Assembly (NCBI GenBank): GCA_007126095.1 | Contig: SLBZ01000087.1 | Location: 1 to 64,000 of the forward strand | Direction of reading: 5' to 3' | DNA: 64,000 nt | DNA from: Aquisalimonas sp. | GTDB lineage: Bacteria > Pseudomonadota > Gammaproteobacteria > Nitrococcales > Aquisalimonadaceae | Shown: in pieces, positions 33,189 through 37,841 of the stretch | How the letters are laid out: every line of letters begins with the position of its first letter | Position numbering within the stretch: the first letter of the stretch is position 1 | Notes under the pieces: generated by a model | What the model saw: only the letters and a program-made list of their open reading frames with translations | Told to the model about the DNA's origin: nothing | The model's database searches: none | Position numbers and translations under genes: made by a program

Positions 33189-33233
33189 GTGCCATGTTGG
33201 TGCATGTGAGCCATGCGTGCACCAACATGGCAC
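33189..33233. promoter_or_regulatory. 16-bp inverted repeat resembling paired NtrC sites
   Basis: Arms GTGCCATGTTGGTGCA and TGCACCAACATGGCAC are perfect complements with a 13-nt spacer. Each arm with its flanking base also matches about 11 of the 14 fixed positions of the NtrC consensus (TGCACCA-N3-TGGTGCA). It stands 55-100 bp upstream of the sigma-54 promoter of the ANTAR gene, the usual place for an enhancer. NtrC binding is inferred from consensus and position. Confidence 0.65.
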
Positions 33234-33286
33234 GGCCCCATGCCCTATCCTGCGTGCAACTCCCTGATTCTCCCCTGCCACAGTCA

Positions 33287-33302
33287 AGGCACGGTGCTTG
33301 CT
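33287..33302 (+). promoter_or_regulatory. Sigma-54 promoter of the ANTAR gene
   Basis: AGGCACGGTGCTTGCT matches the -24/-12 consensus TGGCACR-N4-TTGCW at every fixed position except the first T, with exact GG-to-GC spacing. Transcription would begin near 33313, about 44 bp before the ANTAR start codon. Confidence 0.75.
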
Positions 33303-33356
33303 TCCTGTTTACCGGCGTGTTCCCGGAAATCCGAGGTACAACCTCAGGAGTAAGCA

Positions 33357-33932
33357 ATGGCAACACGAGTCATGCTCGTTGACGAATACCCGGACCGGGC
33401 CGTCTGGCTCGGGGACGCCCTGAACGATGCCGGCTATGAAGTGGCCTGCACCGTAAAGGCTCACGAAGACCTCTACCAGCGCGTGCTGGATGTCCAGCCC
33501 GATGTGGTCATTGTTGAGGCCCGCTCGGGACGGCGGGACATTCTGGAAGGCTTGGGGACACGGAATTCGCCCTACCCGAAACCGGTGGTGCTGTTCACCG
33601 AACACAGCGACCCGGAGCTGATGCAGGCGGCCACTGCCGCGGGGGTGAGCCCCTATGTGGTGGGAGGCCTCTCAGCGGAGGGCGTGCGCTCCATCATCAA
33701 CGTGGCCATCAACCAGTTCCATCAGTACGAGCAACTGCGGCATGAACTGGTGGACGCGCGCACCCGACTGGAGCACCAGCGCCAGATGGAACAGGCCAAG
33801 TGTTTTCTCATGGAACGCGACGGCATCAGCGAGAATGACGCCTACCATATGCTGCGGCGAACGGCCATGGAGCGCGCCCGACCCATCAGCGATATTGCCC
33901 GCGCCTTCCTGCGCGCCAACGGACGCGCCTGA
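33357..33932 (+). CDS. ANTAR-domain RNA-binding antiterminator (NasT/AmiR-like)
   Basis: A 191-residue response-regulator-like protein. The N-terminal ~120 residues have a receiver fold, but the phosphate-accepting Asp is replaced: DVVIVEARSG puts Glu at residue 54. A coiled linker (HQYEQLRHELVDARTRLEHQRQ) leads into the C-terminal ANTAR domain (QAKCFLMERDGISENDAYHMLRRTAMERARPISDIARAFL), which binds paired RNA hairpins and prevents transcription termination. No NasS-like partner gene is seen nearby. The upstream sigma-54 promoter and the terminated leader of the following transport operon make that operon its probable target. Confidence 0.92.
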   Translation: MATRVMLVDEYPDRAVWLGDALNDAGYEVACTVKAHEDLYQRVLDVQPDVVIVEARSGRRDILEGLGTRNSPYPKPVVLFTEHSDPELMQAATAAGVSPYVVGGLSAEGVRSIINVAINQFHQYEQLRHELVDARTRLEHQRQMEQAKCFLMERDGISENDAYHMLRRTAMERARPISDIARAFLRANGRA

Positions 33933-33950
33933 CTGACCACCAACCGCGCC

Positions 33951-33988
33951 GTGCCGGTGCACACCGCCCCACAACAGTGCACCGGCAC
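33951..33988. promoter_or_regulatory. Inverted repeat upstream of the transport operon, NtrC-like
   Basis: GTGCCGGTGC and GCACCGGCAC form a perfect 10-bp inverted repeat with an 18-nt spacer. The left arm with flanking bases matches about 10 of 14 fixed NtrC-consensus positions; the right arm is weaker. It lies 60-95 bp before the sigma-54 promoter at 34046, mirroring the arrangement upstream of the ANTAR gene. Confidence 0.5.
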
Positions 33989-34045
33989 CGCCACACCCCC
34001 TCGGGAAACCGAAAAAAAAGACGTTAACTCAGACTTTTACTAACA

Positions 34046-34061
34046 TGGCACGAGTCATGCA
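34046..34061 (+). promoter_or_regulatory. Sigma-54 promoter of the ABC transporter-cynS operon
   Basis: TGGCACGAGTCATGCA matches the -24/-12 consensus at all fixed positions except one (A for T at position 12), with exact spacing between GG and GC. Expected transcription start is near 34072, giving a leader of about 145 nt. Confidence 0.8.
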
Positions 34062-34079
34062 TTACTTTCTCTGACACGC

Positions 34080-34138
34080 GCGAATCCGGCTCAACCGCGA
34101 GCAGCGGTTCCCAACGGCGGGACGTCAGCCGGATTCGC
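34080..34138 (+). promoter_or_regulatory. Structured leader RNA, candidate ANTAR target
   Basis: A 12-bp perfect outer stem (GCGAATCCGGCT at 34080-34091 with its complement at 34127-34138) encloses two tandem hairpins: AACCGC/GCGGTT with a 5-nt loop at 34093-34109, and TCCC/GGGA at 34109-34122 with the hexaloop AACGGC. The hexaloop has A at position 1 and G at 4, as known for ANTAR-binding hairpins; the first loop does not fit that rule. A terminator follows 19 nt later. Antitermination is inferred. Confidence 0.6.
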
Positions 34139-34156
34139 CAACCTGAACCTGGCAAG

Positions 34157-34193
34157 GGCGCCTACCACCAACCCCGGTGGGGCGCCTTTTTTT
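34157..34193 (+). terminator. Intrinsic terminator inside the operon leader (attenuator)
   Basis: Stem GGCGCC...CCACC with GGTGG.GGCGCC followed by seven T residues, ending 24 bp before the binding-protein start codon. Since it lies between promoter and first gene, it must be bypassed for expression, which marks it as an attenuator. Confidence 0.88.
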
Positions 34194-34216
34194 GTTGCGA
34201 CAACGAGGGCGATGCG

Positions 34217-35638
34217 ATGACCAACAAATCACTCGGCGACCCGTTCGACCCGAACAGCGACCTGCGCCACAGCGCGGGATGCACGTGCAGCACGTGTCAT
34301 GATCACGGCCATGAGGCCACCGCCGGCGACGACCTGCACGCGCTGGCGTCGCCCCACGAACAAGGCGGTGCCCCCGCAGATCGCGAGGCGCTCATGGACC
34401 GCCTGATCGAGAGTGCGGTGGTCCGGGCGCTGTTCGGCCACCACGACCCCAGCCGTCGGCAGGTTCTGCAGATGATGGGGGCCGGCACCTTCGCCGCCGC
34501 CCTCGGGTCCATGTTCCCTCTCGAGGCGGCGAAGGCGCTGCTCAAGGACGATCTGGGGACGCCGGAGAAACGCGACCTGAGCATCGGCTTTATCCCGATC
34601 ACCTGCGCCACGCCAATCATCATGGCGCACCCCATGGGGTTCTACGAGCGCTACGGACTGAATGTGGACGTCCGGCGTGAAGCGGGTTGGGCCGTCGTCC
34701 GTGACAACTCCATGAACATGGAGCACGACGCCGCACACATGCTCACCCCCATGCCGCTCGCCATCACCATGGGGGCCGGTTCCAGCTCCATGCCCTTCCT
34801 GATGCCGGCGGTGGAGAACATCAACGGCCAGGCGATCACCTTGCGCATGGACCACAAGGACAAGCGCGACCCCAAGGACTGGAAGGGCTTCACCTTTGCC
34901 GTGCCCTTCGAGTACTCCATGCACAACTTCCTGCTGCGGTACTACGTGGCCGAGCACGGCCTGGACCCGGACAACGACATCTCCATCCGCGTGCTGCCGC
35001 CACCGGAGATGGTCGCCAACCTCCAGGCCGGGAACGTGGATGGCTACCTGGCGCCGGACCCGTTCAACCAGCGCGCGGTCTGGGACGAGGTGGGCTTCAT
35101 TCACATGCTCACCAAGGAGATCTGGGACGGCCACCCGTGCTGCGCTTTCAGCACCAGTCGGCAGTTCGCCGAAGAAGCGCCCAACAGCTTCGGTGCCCTG
35201 TTCAAGGCCATCGTCGATGCCACCCACTACTCGTCGAACCACGACAACCGGGCGGAAATCGCAGAGGCGATCTCGGGGCGCAACTATCTCAACCAGCCCA
35301 CCTCGGTGGTGGAACAGGTACTCACCGGTCGCTATGCCGACGGCCTGGGCGAGGTCAAGAACGAGCCCAACCGCATCGACTTCGACCCCTTCCCCTGGCA
35401 CTCCATGGGCGTGTGGATCCTCACCCAGATGAAGCGCTGGGGCTACATCGACGGTGACGTGGATTACAAGGGCGTCGCCGAGGACGTCTACCTGGCCACG
35501 GACTGCGCCAGGCTCATGCGCGATCTGGGCTACGAGGCCCCGGACGTGACCTACAAATCCCACACGATCATGGGCAAAGACTTCGACCCGGAAGAGCCGG
35601 AGGCCTATGTGGACAGCTTCGAAATCCGGAGGTCGTAA
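34217..35638 (+). CDS. Nitrate/cyanate ABC transporter substrate-binding protein (NrtA/CynA-like)
   Basis: Periplasmic binding protein of 473 residues in the NrtA/CmpA/CynA family. Unusual N-terminus: a His/Cys-rich stretch GCTCSTCHDHGHEA near residue 25, then RRQVLQMMGAGTFAAALGSMFPLEAA, a twin-arginine-like signal set about 80 residues in. The body has GFIPITCATPIIMAHPMGFYERYGL and GYLAPDPFNQRAVWDEVGF, characteristic of oxyanion-binding NrtA relatives. The metal-like N-terminal motif occurs in some relatives, role unknown. Linkage to cynS favours cyanate; the ANTAR control favours nitrate or general nitrogen supply. Confidence 0.88.
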   Translation: MTNKSLGDPFDPNSDLRHSAGCTCSTCHDHGHEATAGDDLHALASPHEQGGAPADREALMDRLIESAVVRALFGHHDPSRRQVLQMMGAGTFAAALGSMFPLEAAKALLKDDLGTPEKRDLSIGFIPITCATPIIMAHPMGFYERYGLNVDVRREAGWAVVRDNSMNMEHDAAHMLTPMPLAITMGAGSSSMPFLMPAVENINGQAITLRMDHKDKRDPKDWKGFTFAVPFEYSMHNFLLRYYVAEHGLDPDNDISIRVLPPPEMVANLQAGNVDGYLAPDPFNQRAVWDEVGFIHMLTKEIWDGHPCCAFSTSRQFAEEAPNSFGALFKAIVDATHYSSNHDNRAEIAEAISGRNYLNQPTSVVEQVLTGRYADGLGEVKNEPNRIDFDPFPWHSMGVWILTQMKRWGYIDGDVDYKGVAEDVYLATDCARLMRDLGYEAPDVTYKSHTIMGKDFDPEEPEAYVDSFEIRRS

Positions 35639-35641
35639 GCC

Positions 35642-36481
35642 ATGTTGACCACCGAAAACCTCAAGGCGGCGCTCCTCAGCGTCGCCCTGCTCATCGTCCT
35701 GCTCGGGGCCTGGGAGTGGAGCATCGAGGGGACAGTGCTGCCCATCGGCGACCAGGAACTGAGCGAGTATGAGCAACTCGTGGGGGGCAGCAGCGGCGGC
35801 TCCAGGATCCCGGCGCCGTCGGCGGTGATCAGCCACGCCATCACCGAGCTGAGTGACCCCTTCTATGTGGCCGGCAGCAATGACATGGGCATCGGCATCC
35901 AACTGGCCCACTCCGTCGGCCGCGTGTTCGCCGGCTACTCCCTGGCACTGCTGGTCGCCATCCCGCTGGGCTTTCTCATCGGCATGTCGCCGATCATGTA
36001 CAAGGCCCTCAACCCGTATATCCAGATCCTGCGGCCCATCTCGCCGCTGGCGTGGATGCCGCTGGCGCTGTTCCTGATCCGGGACTCCGGGGCGTCGTCG
36101 ATCTTCGTGATCTTCATCTGCTCCATCTGGCCGGTGCTGCTGAACACCGCCTTCGGCGTGGCCGGGGTATCGCGGGATCTGCGCAACGTGGCCCGGACGC
36201 TGGAGCTGTCGTCCCTGAAAACGGCCTTCGCCGTGATCCTCCCGGCCGCGGCGCCGACGATTCTCACCGGCATGCGGATCGCCATCGGCATCTCGTGGCT
36301 GGTGATCGTGGCCGCGGAGATGCTCGTGGGGGGCAGCGGCATCGGGTACTACATCTGGAACGAGTGGAACAACCTGGACATCACCAGCGTGATCTTCTCG
36401 ATCCTGATGATCGGCATCGTCGGGATGTTCCTGGACAGCATCCTCGCGGCGGCGACACGCATGGTCCAGTACGACACCTGA
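35642..36481 (+). CDS. ABC transporter permease (NrtB/CynB-like)
   Basis: A 279-residue permease with an N-terminal membrane anchor (LLSVALLIVLLGAWEW), a periplasmic stretch, and five further helices of the BPD_transp_1 domain; the EAA loop that docks on the ATPase is visible around RTLELSSLKTAFAVILPAAAPTILTGMRIAIGISWLV. It begins 3 bp after the binding-protein stop, so the genes are co-translated. Sequence resembles NrtB and the aliphatic sulfonate/taurine permeases, as whole-family neighbours do. Confidence 0.92.
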   Translation: MLTTENLKAALLSVALLIVLLGAWEWSIEGTVLPIGDQELSEYEQLVGGSSGGSRIPAPSAVISHAITELSDPFYVAGSNDMGIGIQLAHSVGRVFAGYSLALLVAIPLGFLIGMSPIMYKALNPYIQILRPISPLAWMPLALFLIRDSGASSIFVIFICSIWPVLLNTAFGVAGVSRDLRNVARTLELSSLKTAFAVILPAAAPTILTGMRIAIGISWLVIVAAEMLVGGSGIGYYIWNEWNNLDITSVIFSILMIGIVGMFLDSILAAATRMVQYDT

Positions 36482-36491
36482 GGCAGACAGC

Positions 36492-37361
36492 ATGACCAAA
36501 CCATTCCTGTACGTGGAAAACCTCAAGAAGGCGTTTCCCGGGCCCCGGGGCCAGGAGCCGCTCACGGTGTTCGAGAACGTCAACTTCGGCATCGACAAGG
36601 GCGAGTTCGTCTGCGTCATCGGCCACTCGGGCTGCGGCAAGTCGACCATTCTCAACGTCATGGCTGGATTGGACGAATCCAGCGACGGCTACGTGTTCAT
36701 GGACGGCAAAGAGGTTCAGGGCACCAGCCTCGACCGTGGCGTCGTCTTCCAGAACCACAGCCTGCTGCCGTGGAAGTCGGCGCTCGCCAACGTCACCTTT
36801 GCCGTGAAGTCGAAATGGCCGGGCTGGTCGAAGGAGAAGATCCGCGACCACGCCATGAAATACATCGAACTTGTAGGCCTCAAGGGGTCCGAGGACAAAC
36901 GCCCCTCACAGCTCTCGGGCGGGATGAAGCAGCGGGTGGGCATCGCCCGCGCGTTCGCCATCGAGCCGAAGATGCTGCTCATGGATGAACCGTTCGGGGC
37001 CCTGGACGCGTTGACCCGCGGCAGCATTCAGGACGAGCTGCTCAAGATCTGCACCGAGACGAAACAGACGGTGTTCATGATCACCCATGACGTGGACGAG
37101 GCCATTCTGCTCTCGGACCGCATCCTGCTCATGACCAACGGACCCCATGCGCAGGTTGCTGAATCCGTCACCGTTCCCATCGCCCGCCCGCGCAAGCGCG
37201 AGACGCTGGTGCGTCAGGACGGCTATTACGAGACCCGGAACCACCTGGTGGACTTCCTGGTGCGCCGCTCCAAGGAACTCCAGGGTGAGTACGTCCAGGA
37301 CGACGGGGACAAGGAACCCGAAGTTACGACGCCGGTGCGGGCAGCCGCCGGCGGCAACTGA
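36492..37361 (+). CDS. ABC transporter ATPase (NrtD/CynD-like)
   Basis: The 289-residue ATPase subunit. Walker A GHSGCGKST, Q-loop VVFQNHSLLPWKS, signature LSGGMKQRVGIARAF, Walker B MLLMDEPFGALDALTR and the switch His in MITHDVDEAI are all intact. The C-terminal ~55 residues include RPRKRETLVRQDGYYETRNHLVDFL, seen in NrtD-type proteins. It is not fused to a binding-protein domain, so it is the D type and not the regulatory NrtC type. Confidence 0.93.
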   Translation: MTKPFLYVENLKKAFPGPRGQEPLTVFENVNFGIDKGEFVCVIGHSGCGKSTILNVMAGLDESSDGYVFMDGKEVQGTSLDRGVVFQNHSLLPWKSALANVTFAVKSKWPGWSKEKIRDHAMKYIELVGLKGSEDKRPSQLSGGMKQRVGIARAFAIEPKMLLMDEPFGALDALTRGSIQDELLKICTETKQTVFMITHDVDEAILLSDRILLMTNGPHAQVAESVTVPIARPRKRETLVRQDGYYETRNHLVDFLVRRSKELQGEYVQDDGDKEPEVTTPVRAAAGGN

Positions 37362-37394: not shown

Positions 37395-37841
37395 ATGATG
37401 GACAAGCACCTGATGCGCGAGATGATCCTCGAGGCCAAGCACCAGAAAGGCGTGAGCTGGGAGTCGCTGGGCAAGGCGACGGGAATGTCGCCGGTCTTCA
37501 TCTGTTCCGCCTGCCTCGGCGAGAACAGCGTGGAGAGCGAACAGGCGAAAGCGCTCGCCAGCGCGCTCGACCTGGGCGACGACATCGCCAGAACCCTCAC
37601 CGAGTATCCGAACAAGGGCCAGCGCGCCGCCGAAATGATCACCGACCCGCTGGTCTACCGCCTGAACGAGGTGGTGATGGTGTACGGCGAGACACTCAAG
37701 GAAGTGATTCAGGAGAAGTTCGGCGACGGCATCATGAGCGCCATCGACTTCACCATGGATGTGGACAAGGTCGAAGACCCGAAAGGGGATCGCGTCGTAC
37801 TGACGCTGAACGGCAAGTTCCTGCCCTACAAGCGCTGGTAA
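37395..37841 (+). CDS. cynS: Cyanate hydratase (cyanase)
   Basis: Converts cyanate and bicarbonate to ammonia and CO2. The 148-residue protein has the N-terminal helix-turn-helix-like domain (KGVSWESLGKATGMSPVFICSACLGENSV) and the C-terminal catalytic part with YRLNEVVMVYGETLKEVIQEKFGDGIMSAIDF, which contains the catalytic Arg, Glu and Ser of cyanases. AAAGGAGAG precedes the ATGATG start. Last gene of the transport operon, so the imported substrate is probably cyanate used as a nitrogen source. Confidence 0.97.
   Translation: MMDKHLMREMILEAKHQKGVSWESLGKATGMSPVFICSACLGENSVESEQAKALASALDLGDDIARTLTEYPNKGQRAAEMITDPLVYRLNEVVMVYGETLKEVIQEKFGDGIMSAIDFTMDVDKVEDPKGDRVVLTLNGKFLPYKRW

What the first reader, a model, noticed from the sequence alone, without database searches (positions are those of the whole stretch)
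33189..34216. Two-layer nitrogen control: sigma-54/NtrC-like signals plus ANTAR attenuation of a cyanate/nitrate operon
Seen: two near-perfect sigma-54 promoters (33287, 34046), each with a GTGC-type inverted repeat upstream (33189-33233, 33951-33988); an ANTAR protein gene between them; and, after the second promoter, a folded leader with a hexaloop AACGGC hairpin and an intrinsic terminator (34157-34193) before the transporter gene. Known: in Klebsiella the nasF nitrate operon uses NasR (ANTAR) antitermination with sigma-54. Inference: here the same logic controls a transporter plus cyanase, and the antiterminator itself is under nitrogen control, giving a feed-forward circuit.
Basis: partly seen in the sequence, partly recalled or inferred. 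Interest (0 to 1): 0.8.

Follow-up and report, generated by a model that had tools for sequence, protein, structure and literature searches.

The report
Two-lock nitrogen switch for cyanate genes
A bacterium close to Aquisalimonas keeps its cyanate-uptake and cyanase genes behind a conserved RNA stop signal that the RNA-binding protein encoded next door is predicted to open, and because the genes for both carry promoters of the type that nitrogen starvation would switch on, the cell likely needs nitrogen hunger at two successive steps before it uses cyanate.

Summary
Two sigma-54 promoters, a REC-ANTAR gene between them, and a leader with an intrinsic terminator precede a NrtA-like transporter and cyanase. 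In 8 loci (the window and seven relatives) where a REC-ANTAR gene precedes this operon, all keep P1 and the terminator, and 7 of 8 keep both A1/G4 hexaloops, with compensatory changes. In 20 cyanate-type loci without a neighbouring ANTAR gene none has the pair; one (G004, same genus) keeps a weakened relic. New points: P1 sits in a three-way junction 26-29 nt from P2, whereas studied eut leaders have 5-12 nt; no NasS-type sensor was found in this genome; the ANTAR phospho-acceptor is glutamate. Best reading: an NtrC-driven feed-forward AND gate on cyanate assimilation, a new variant of the NasT-type ANTAR leader. Not shown: RNA binding, NtrC binding, any ligand. Against: a stop codon in one relative's ANTAR gene, and weak NtrC-like sites in this window.

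The parts
33189..33233 (.). Inverted repeat upstream of the ANTAR gene: two oppositely oriented GTGCC-ATGTT-GGTGCA half-matches to NtrC sites, 29 bp apart; predicted enhancer site pair
   Evidence: 16-nt arms, 100%; 17-mers 9/12 each, centres at -92 and -62 from the -24 GG; shuffle p = 0.28 for this locus alone
33287..33302 (+). Sigma-54 promoter of the ANTAR gene (AGGCACGGTGCTTGCT)
   Evidence: best GG-N10-GC-type element scores 8-10 of 10 upstream of the ANTAR gene in 8 of 8 loci (GT instead of GC in L038), though runners-up of 8-9 occur in three of these stretches
33357..33932 (+). REC-ANTAR regulator, 191 aa; phospho-acceptor position is Glu54, receiver Lys missing
   Evidence: AlphaFold2 model from 18 sequences, mean pLDDT 84.3
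33948..33991 (.). Inverted repeat upstream of the operon promoter, same arm geometry as the first; the first arm overlaps CGCGCC-GTGCC-GGTGCA (10/12), the second arm is below 8/12
34046..34061 (+). Sigma-54 promoter of the cyanate operon (TGGCACGAGTCATGCA); start of transcription predicted near 34071
   Evidence: conserved in 8 of 8 ANTAR-linked loci (GA for GC in L038)
34080..34138 (+). Three-way junction: outer stem P0 (34080-34091 with 34127-34138), hairpin Pa (34094-34108), hexaloop hairpin P1 inside
34109..34122 (+). P1 hairpin, CCC-AACGGC-GGG core at 34110-34121, hexaloop with A1 and G4
   Evidence: present in 8 of 8 ANTAR-linked loci
34151..34162 (+). P2 hairpin GGC-AAGGGC-GCC, hexaloop with A1 and G4; its loop and 3' side are the terminator's 5' arm
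   Evidence: A1/G4 loop in 7 of 8 loci (L035 has GAAGGC)
34154..34193 (+). Intrinsic terminator: stem 34154-34162 with 34181-34189, inner stem 34165-34169 with 34176-34180, T-run 34187-34193
   Evidence: pairs covary
34217..35638 (+). NrtA/CmpA-type substrate-binding protein, 473 aa, Tat-like SRRQVLQMMG motif, N-terminal CTCSTC
35642..36481 (+). ABC permease (ntrB model above cut-off)
36492..37361 (+). ABC ATPase (ntrCD model above cut-off)
37395..37841 (+). Cyanase CynS
   Evidence: cynS 172.2 bits, cut-off 113.3

Best explanation
The leader at 34.07-34.22 kb is a conserved ANTAR-type attenuator: behind a sigma-54-type promoter lie two hexaloop hairpins, the second of which overlaps the arm of a predicted intrinsic terminator, and the ANTAR protein encoded just upstream is predicted to bind them and keep the terminator from forming, so that the cyanate-uptake and cyanase genes would be read. 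Shown by sequence comparison: the two promoter elements, P1, P2, the terminator, pairing that supports the junction, their conservation, and a weakened terminator without a T-run in the one relative that keeps the operon and leader but has no ANTAR gene beside it. Inferred: phosphorylated NtrC drives both promoters, giving a coherent feed-forward AND gate. Nitrogen limitation would make both the leader transcript and the protein that rescues it, so short or weak signals would end at the terminator. Inferred with less certainty: since no NasS-type partner was found and the receiver has Glu at the phospho-acceptor, the ANTAR protein likely works without NasS, and its amount, set by NtrC, is the main input.
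For: ANTAR-operon linkage in seven other genomes. Dual A1/G4 hexaloops, P2 sharing nine bases with the terminator arm, as described for ANTAR targets (PMC3369931, passages). Covariation on the plain alignment: 25 double-change cells against 9.6 in shuffles; score 0.399, against 0.223 shuffled and at most 0.161 when slid. Of 28 cyanate-type loci, an A1/G4 hexaloop pair lies downstream of the best sigma-54 element in 7 of 8 with the ANTAR gene and 0 of 20 without; terminators of -21 to -34 kcal/mol in 8 of 8 of the former. G004, same genus: operon and sigma-54 element kept, no ANTAR gene beside them, terminator stem weakened (-14.5 to -16.1 against -23.7 kcal/mol for the window) and no run of four T. 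NtrC ortholog 750.6 bits (cut-off 620) and RpoN 470.4 bits (cut-off 277) in the genome. glnA of the same genome (partial at a contig end, 407.6 bits) has two NtrC-type sites 31 bp apart before a sigma-54 element. The leader model hits the genome once, here (only 62 of 2771 first-look candidates were scored). No NasS-type match beyond two transporter-type proteins.
Against: No experiment. G008's ANTAR gene carries an in-frame TAA before the ANTAR domain although its leader is intact: an assembly error or a recent loss. NtrC-like sites in this window are weak (9/12, p = 0.28; 10/12, p = 0.01); L038's ANTAR promoter shows none (8/12, p = 0.82). The P1-P2 distance (26-29 nt) exceeds what EutV tolerates in vitro (PMC8934654, passages). 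Unconstrained folding shows the P1 hexaloop in 5 of 8 leaders; L046 gives a 7-nt loop, L035 and L038 other folds, and holding P1 and P2 costs 0.5-6.9 kcal/mol. One of five covariation measures, further pair types, does not exceed shuffles (22 against 21.7). G026's ANTAR is only 29% identical and has Asp at the acceptor. The genome is 95.5% complete, so a NasS gene could be missing. All eight ANTAR-linked loci are from one order. G004 has other weak ANTAR-type matches elsewhere.
Confidence: 0.75

Rival explanations
1. The transport binding protein itself is the sensor: its cytoplasmic precursor holds the ANTAR protein, NasS-like, and releases it when cyanate binds, so the first gene behind the terminator feeds back on it.
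For: The binding protein is NrtA-like and its gene follows the ANTAR gene, as in the ANTAR and binding-protein pairs of L039-L041, read here as nasT-nasS. NasS is NrtA-like (PMC3795266, passages). No other partner was found. Receiver motifs shared with the L039-L041 proteins (RD-LE-L, VRS--NVAI) are retained.
Against: A Tat-like SRR motif is conserved in 10 of 10 aligned proteins, including two with no ANTAR neighbour, which points to export and to no ANTAR-specific adaptation. No complex was modelled.
Confidence: 0.2
2. A NasS-type or other sensor encoded elsewhere, or missing from the assembly, controls the ANTAR protein exactly as in NasS-NasT.
For: NasT of Paracoccus and Bradyrhizobium works with NasS, and a nasS mutant is constitutive (PMC3795266; PMC6759348; passages). 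The assembly is 95.5% complete.
Against: Only two family members in G000, both transporter-type (100% and 64% identity); G002 likewise has only two (that genome is 82% complete).
Confidence: 0.2
3. The leader is only a constitutive attenuator or an end-of-transcript hairpin, and the ANTAR gene acts elsewhere.
For: A terminator alone lowers expression without any protein; the simple terminator scan showed no excess in this region.
Against: The A1/G4 hexaloops and the P2-terminator overlap are conserved in 7-8 of 8 loci with the ANTAR gene and the pair is absent in 20 of 20 without it. It is the only leader-model hit in the genome.
Confidence: 0.05
4. Another sigma-54 activator, for example a CynF-like protein, rather than NtrC drives the two promoters.
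For: The genome has many sigma-54 activators (15 matches to the NtrC model at E <= 1e-20, some receiver-only; one beside the second binding-protein copy). CynF drives cynABDS in P. pseudoalcaligenes (PMC6627978, passages). Sites here are imperfect.
Against: NtrC-type 17-mers recur in relatives at both promoters (combined shuffle p about 9e-8 and 3e-8, related loci counted as independent). Arm spacing (29 bp) resembles that of the glnA sites (31 bp) in the same genome.
Confidence: 0.25

Closest known systems
NasS-NasT control of assimilation leaders (Paracoccus nasA; Bradyrhizobium)
   Same: ANTAR protein without its own sensing domain, leader hairpins before a terminator, nitrogen genes (PMC3795266, PMC6759348, passages)
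   Different: Target is a cyanate transporter-cyanase operon; no NasS found; Glu instead of Asp at the acceptor in 7 of 8 operon-linked proteins
Rfam RF03032 narK RNA (and RF00625 P11)
   Same: The narK consensus printed reads, to me, as a sigma-54 element, a CC-AACGGC-GG hexaloop hairpin, a linker of about seven bases and a GAC-AAAGAC-GUC second hairpin
   Different: The window leader does not match it at E <= 10: P1 is short, sits in a three-way junction, and the P1-P2 distance is 29 nt
EutV-type dual-hexaloop antiterminators (eut leaders)
   Same: Two hexaloops with A1/G4, second overlapping the terminator (PMC3369931, passages)
   Different: eut linkers are 5-12 nt; 3 or 14 nt impairs induction (PMC3369931) and a 20-nt extension abolishes antitermination (PMC8934654); here 26-29 nt, with P0 folding part of the extra length
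Klebsiella NasR/nasF
   Same: ANTAR antitermination of a nitrogen operon
   Different: NasR carries its own nitrate-sensing NIT domain (PMC3369931, passages); this protein has none
cynFABDS of Pseudomonas pseudoalcaligenes CECT5344
   Same: sigma-54 promoter before a binding protein-permease-ATPase-cyanase operon
   Different: There expression depends on the activator CynF, and the word leader does not occur in the main text (PMC6627978); here an ANTAR leader is present and no CynF was seen beside the operon

Membership tests
ANTAR protein (PF03861) | ANTAR domain above curated cut-off | tested here: met
   57.5 bits, cut-off 27.3; the Tyr and Met that contact RNA in EutV (PMC8934654) are kept in the alignment
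ANTAR dual-hexaloop target RNA | Two short hairpins with hexaloops having A at position 1 and G at 4 | tested here: met
   P1 AACGGC and P2 AAGGGC
ANTAR dual-hexaloop target RNA | Second hairpin overlaps the 5' arm of an intrinsic terminator | tested here: met
   34154-34162 shared
ANTAR dual-hexaloop target RNA | Linker of about 5-12 nt (eut leaders) | tested here: not met
   26-29 nt in 8 of 8 loci; 4-17 nt unpaired directly before P2 once P0 is folded. So filed as a variant, not a standard member
ANTAR dual-hexaloop target RNA | Protein binding and antitermination | not testable with these tools
   needs gel shift and in vitro transcription
NasS-NasT | NasT-like pseudo-receiver ANTAR | tested here: met
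   42-43% identity to the ANTAR proteins of L039-L041 (G016, G034, G020); receiver Lys missing
NasS-NasT | Cytoplasmic NrtA-like NasS partner | tested here: not met
   none in G000 at E <= 1e-3 beyond two transporter-type proteins; assembly 95.5% complete
RF03032 narK RNA | Match to the covariance model | tested here: not met
   no narK match in window 34050-34216 at E <= 10
NtrC/sigma-54 regulon | -24/-12 element | tested here: met
   conserved
NtrC/sigma-54 regulon | TGCACC-N5-GGTGCA enhancer sites | tested here: inconclusive
   9/12 and 10/12 in the window; 10-11/12 at 12 of 14 promoters of the seven relatives; exceptions L038's ANTAR promoter (8/12) and L046's operon promoter (4/12, only a short stretch was scanned)
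Cyanate assimilation operon (cynABDS) | NrtABD-type transporter followed by cyanase | tested here: met

The most novel reading that the evidence does not exclude
An ANTAR regulator that has shed its ligand sensor: Glu at the phospho-acceptor keeps it permanently able to bind RNA, so that NtrC alone, acting twice on the same operon, runs an RNA-level AND gate, and a three-way junction replaces the short linker that other ANTAR leaders need, folding the first hexaloop back next to the second.
Probability: 0.35. Interest if true: 0.72.

Novelty: new variant of a known kind. Interest (0 to 1): 0.56.

Why it matters
No paper found here describes ANTAR control of cyanate use (searches; an open-licence library only; the list was cut at 20 of 26 and seen mostly as titles and abstract starts). 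If right, it adds cyanate assimilation to the ANTAR regulons, and it offers natural leaders in which the reported P1-P2 spacing limit is met by a folded junction instead of a short linker. That makes the model in which one ANTAR dimer passes from the first hexaloop to the second directly testable. It also asks how a NasT-type protein works without NasS, and gives a natural feed-forward circuit whose two arms are a transcription activator and an antiterminator. The G004 relic is a natural deletion experiment.

Tried and rejected
Rfam scan of the window: only a tRNA at gathering score, and seven sub-threshold matches (E 0.76 to 8.1) in the leader, none an ANTAR or nitrogen leader. Single-protein scan of genome contigs: one distant locus only (L048), dropped. 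The class-wide leader search (14 of 369 genomes, own included) gave four clear ANTAR-type leaders elsewhere (L083 before NirB; L084, L086, L088 before NrtA-like binding proteins as I read their translations) and two likely ones in G079 (L096; L097 before a NarK-type gene); the rest look like chance. Idea that the 16-nt inverted repeat at 33189 is a terminator of the upstream outer-membrane gene: no T-run follows, and the same geometry recurs at the second promoter, so it was set aside, not excluded. G012 was dropped from the counts: its ANTAR gene is cut after residue 149 and the genome has no match to the cyanate-type binding protein. The protein search gave 9 relatives. The ANTAR tree separates the eight cyanate-linked from the three L039-L041 proteins by one branch with 91/94 support, but only 4 of 20 inner branches are starred and L046 sits on a long branch. 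Weak terminator-like hairpins (-12 to -17 kcal/mol) do occur between promoter and start in 3 of the 20 loci without ANTAR (L150, L152, L153), and one (-11.6) in L160, where no sigma-54 element scored 8, without the hexaloop pair.
Full report
What is there. The window, from a genome whose ANTAR protein is 97% identical to one of Aquisalimonas asiatica, holds in one direction: an outer-membrane-type gene, a 16-nt inverted repeat, a sigma-54 element (33287), a REC-ANTAR gene (33357-33932), a second inverted repeat, a second sigma-54 element (34046), a structured leader, and genes for a NrtA-like binding protein, permease, ATPase and cyanase.

Besides the AACGGC hexaloop (P1, 34110-34121) there is a second hexaloop hairpin, GGC-AAGGGC-GCC (P2, 34151-34162), with A at position 1 and G at position 4. 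Its loop and 3' side are the 5' arm of the terminator (34154-34193), so P2 and the terminator cannot form together. This is the layout published for ANTAR targets (PMC3369931, passages read). P1 is enclosed by a perfect 12-bp outer stem P0 together with a third hairpin Pa: a three-way junction.

Conservation. A search of 59 genomes (own included) with the ANTAR protein and fetched neighbourhoods gave seven further loci where a REC-ANTAR gene lies directly upstream of this operon (L033-L038, L046). The L033 contig ends within the binding-protein gene; the other six carry the operon through cyanase. All eight leaders, the window included, keep P1, the terminator and the sigma-54 element (GA instead of GC at -12 in L038). 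P2 has A1 and G4 in seven; L035 has GAAGGC. On the plain alignment 23 pairs were counted: 86.4% of cells pair, 25 cells have changes on both sides (shuffled mean 9.6), covariation score 0.399 (shuffled 0.223; slid at most 0.161); the number of further pair types does not exceed the shuffles (22 against 21.7). P0 is paired in 66.7% of cells in that alignment, whose register shifts between loci. An alignment fitted to the structure gives 0.446 and 78.7% and leans that way by construction. Eight sequences with close pairs (L033/L034, L036/L037) are few, so I treat this as good, not final, support.

Folding. Left free, five of the eight leaders show the P1 hexaloop in the best fold (window, L033, L034, L036, L037); L046 shows a 7-nt loop there, and L035 and L038 fold otherwise. 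With P1 and P2 held, all eight form the junction, at a cost of 0.5-6.9 kcal/mol (2.0 for the window). The P1-P2 distance is 26-29 nt in all eight, with 4-17 nt unpaired just before P2 (12 in the window).

Absence test. 28 binding-protein loci of the cyanate type were examined for the 300 bases before the start codon: the eight above, G004's operon, the second copies in G000, G002 and G003, and 16 loci from a class-wide search (17 of 369 genomes, own included, with a match at E <= 1e-100). None of the last 20 has an ANTAR gene adjacent in the stretch fetched (only 422 bases upstream were available for L168); the own-genome stretch L051 does hold an AmiR-like ANTAR gene about 14 kb away. A pair of A1/G4 hexaloops downstream of the best sigma-54 element is found in 7 of 8 ANTAR-linked loci and 0 of 20 others. 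Upstream of a binding-protein start the leader model finds, among these others, only G004's relics; it also hits a spot downstream of cyanase in L161. Sigma-54 elements scoring at least 8 of 10 are general (18 of those 20), so the promoter belongs to the operon at large and the ANTAR leader is an added layer. G004, in the same genus, keeps the operon and promoter but has no ANTAR gene there. Its leader is still recognisable (37.2 bits) and keeps a P1-like hairpin, but the terminator region folds at only -14.5 to -16.1 kcal/mol (window -23.7) and has no run of four T. A second relic lies before a truncated binding-protein start.

Nitrogen input. The genome has an NtrC ortholog and RpoN. Its glnA (partial) carries two NtrC-type 17-mers (11/12 each) 31 bp apart before a sigma-54 element, a positive control. 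In the window both inverted repeats place their arms 29 bp apart, about 92 and 63 bp before the -24 GG. Match quality is modest: 9/12 (shuffle p = 0.28) and 10/12 (p = 0.01), and the second arm of the second repeat is below 8/12. In relatives 12 of 14 promoters reach 10-11/12; combined p values are about 9e-8 (ANTAR promoters) and 3e-8 (operon promoters), with related loci counted as if independent. NtrC control of both promoters is therefore likely, not shown.

Signal. NasT works with the binding-protein-like partner NasS; a nasS mutant is constitutive (PMC3795266, passages). In G000 the only family members are the operon's own protein and a 64% copy, both transporter-type. The ANTAR protein has Glu at the acceptor position; so do 7 of the 8 operon-linked proteins (window included; L046 has Asp), whereas the three proteins of L039-L041 have Asp. 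The AmiR-like protein of the same genome also has Glu there, so this may only mark pseudo-receivers. That Glu can mimic phospho-Asp, as in NtrC D54E, is recalled, not from a call. I therefore favour a NasS-free ANTAR whose amount is the signal, at moderate confidence, with the binding protein as sensor as one main rival.

How it would work. Under nitrogen limitation NtrC would activate 33287 and 34046. Early leader transcripts would end at about 34193. As ANTAR protein accumulates it would bind P1, then P2, as each is transcribed, keep the terminator open, and let the cyanate genes be made. That is a coherent feed-forward AND gate with delay. The constant P1-P2 distance and the junction suggest that P0 does the work of the short linker. 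In EutV one dimer is proposed to bind the first hexaloop and then the second, and a 20-nt longer linker abolishes antitermination (PMC8934654, passages), which makes this a pointed test. In ANTAR-type leaders found in other families the arrangement varies: L088 has a 7-bp P1 and a distance near the usual one, while L083, L084 and L086 have long distances with enclosing stems of another make.

Known context. Rfam's narK RNA reads as a sigma-54 element plus the same P1 loop and a P2 with a short linker (my reading of the consensus); the window does not match it. A sigma-54 promoter survey lists cyanase and ANTAR genes separately (PMC12316311, passages). CynF-type control is the known alternative for cyanate operons (PMC6627978, passages). 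Five paper searches found no report of ANTAR control of cyanate use. The one paper holding both antiterminator and cyanase has them only in its reference list.

Verdict. Real, conserved and functional-looking; a new variant of the NasT-type ANTAR leader in a new metabolic setting. Against it stand the stop codon in G008's ANTAR gene, the weak NtrC sites in this window, the low identity of G026's ANTAR, the fold costs in some relatives, and the lack of any experiment.

Noticed in passing
L051:16202-17566 (own genome C112:52201-53565): Second cyanate-type binding-protein gene (64% identical) with a sigma-54 element 69 bp upstream, no attenuator, and a sigma-54 activator match about 0.5 kb further on (C112:54104); possibly a CynF-like pair.
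   Followed up: partly
L002:1090-1740 (own genome C112, about 38.1 kb): The only other ANTAR-domain gene found in the genome, directly after a urea-type binding-protein gene (289 bits to UrtA, below its cut-off).
   Followed up: partly
L043:306-5594 (G008): ANTAR gene (38% identity) beside a formamidase gene, a gene like nitrile hydratase alpha / thiocyanate hydrolase gamma, and a binding protein 49% identical to the cyanate one.
   Followed up: partly
L161:7640-7761 (G079): Leader-model hit just downstream of cyanase near a contig end: sigma-54 element, P2-like GGAC-AAAGGC-GTCT and terminator; the gene it would control lies off the contig.
   Followed up: no
window 34217-34500: The binding protein has an N-terminal DLxHxAGCxCxxC motif some 50-60 residues before the Tat-like SRR, conserved in 10 of 10 aligned proteins; its role is unknown.
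   Followed up: partly
[quoted passage not shown]
   Followed up: no
L042 and L047 contig ends (G012): ANTAR gene cut off after residue 149 and followed by repeated GGGGACACCCAT-type sequence, in a genome without a match to the cyanate-type binding protein: possible co-loss.
   Followed up: partly
Rfam RF00625 (P11) and RF03032 (narK), as aligned: Both Rfam families look like NasT-type ANTAR leaders, so the Pseudomonas sRNA P11 may be a terminated leader.
   Followed up: no
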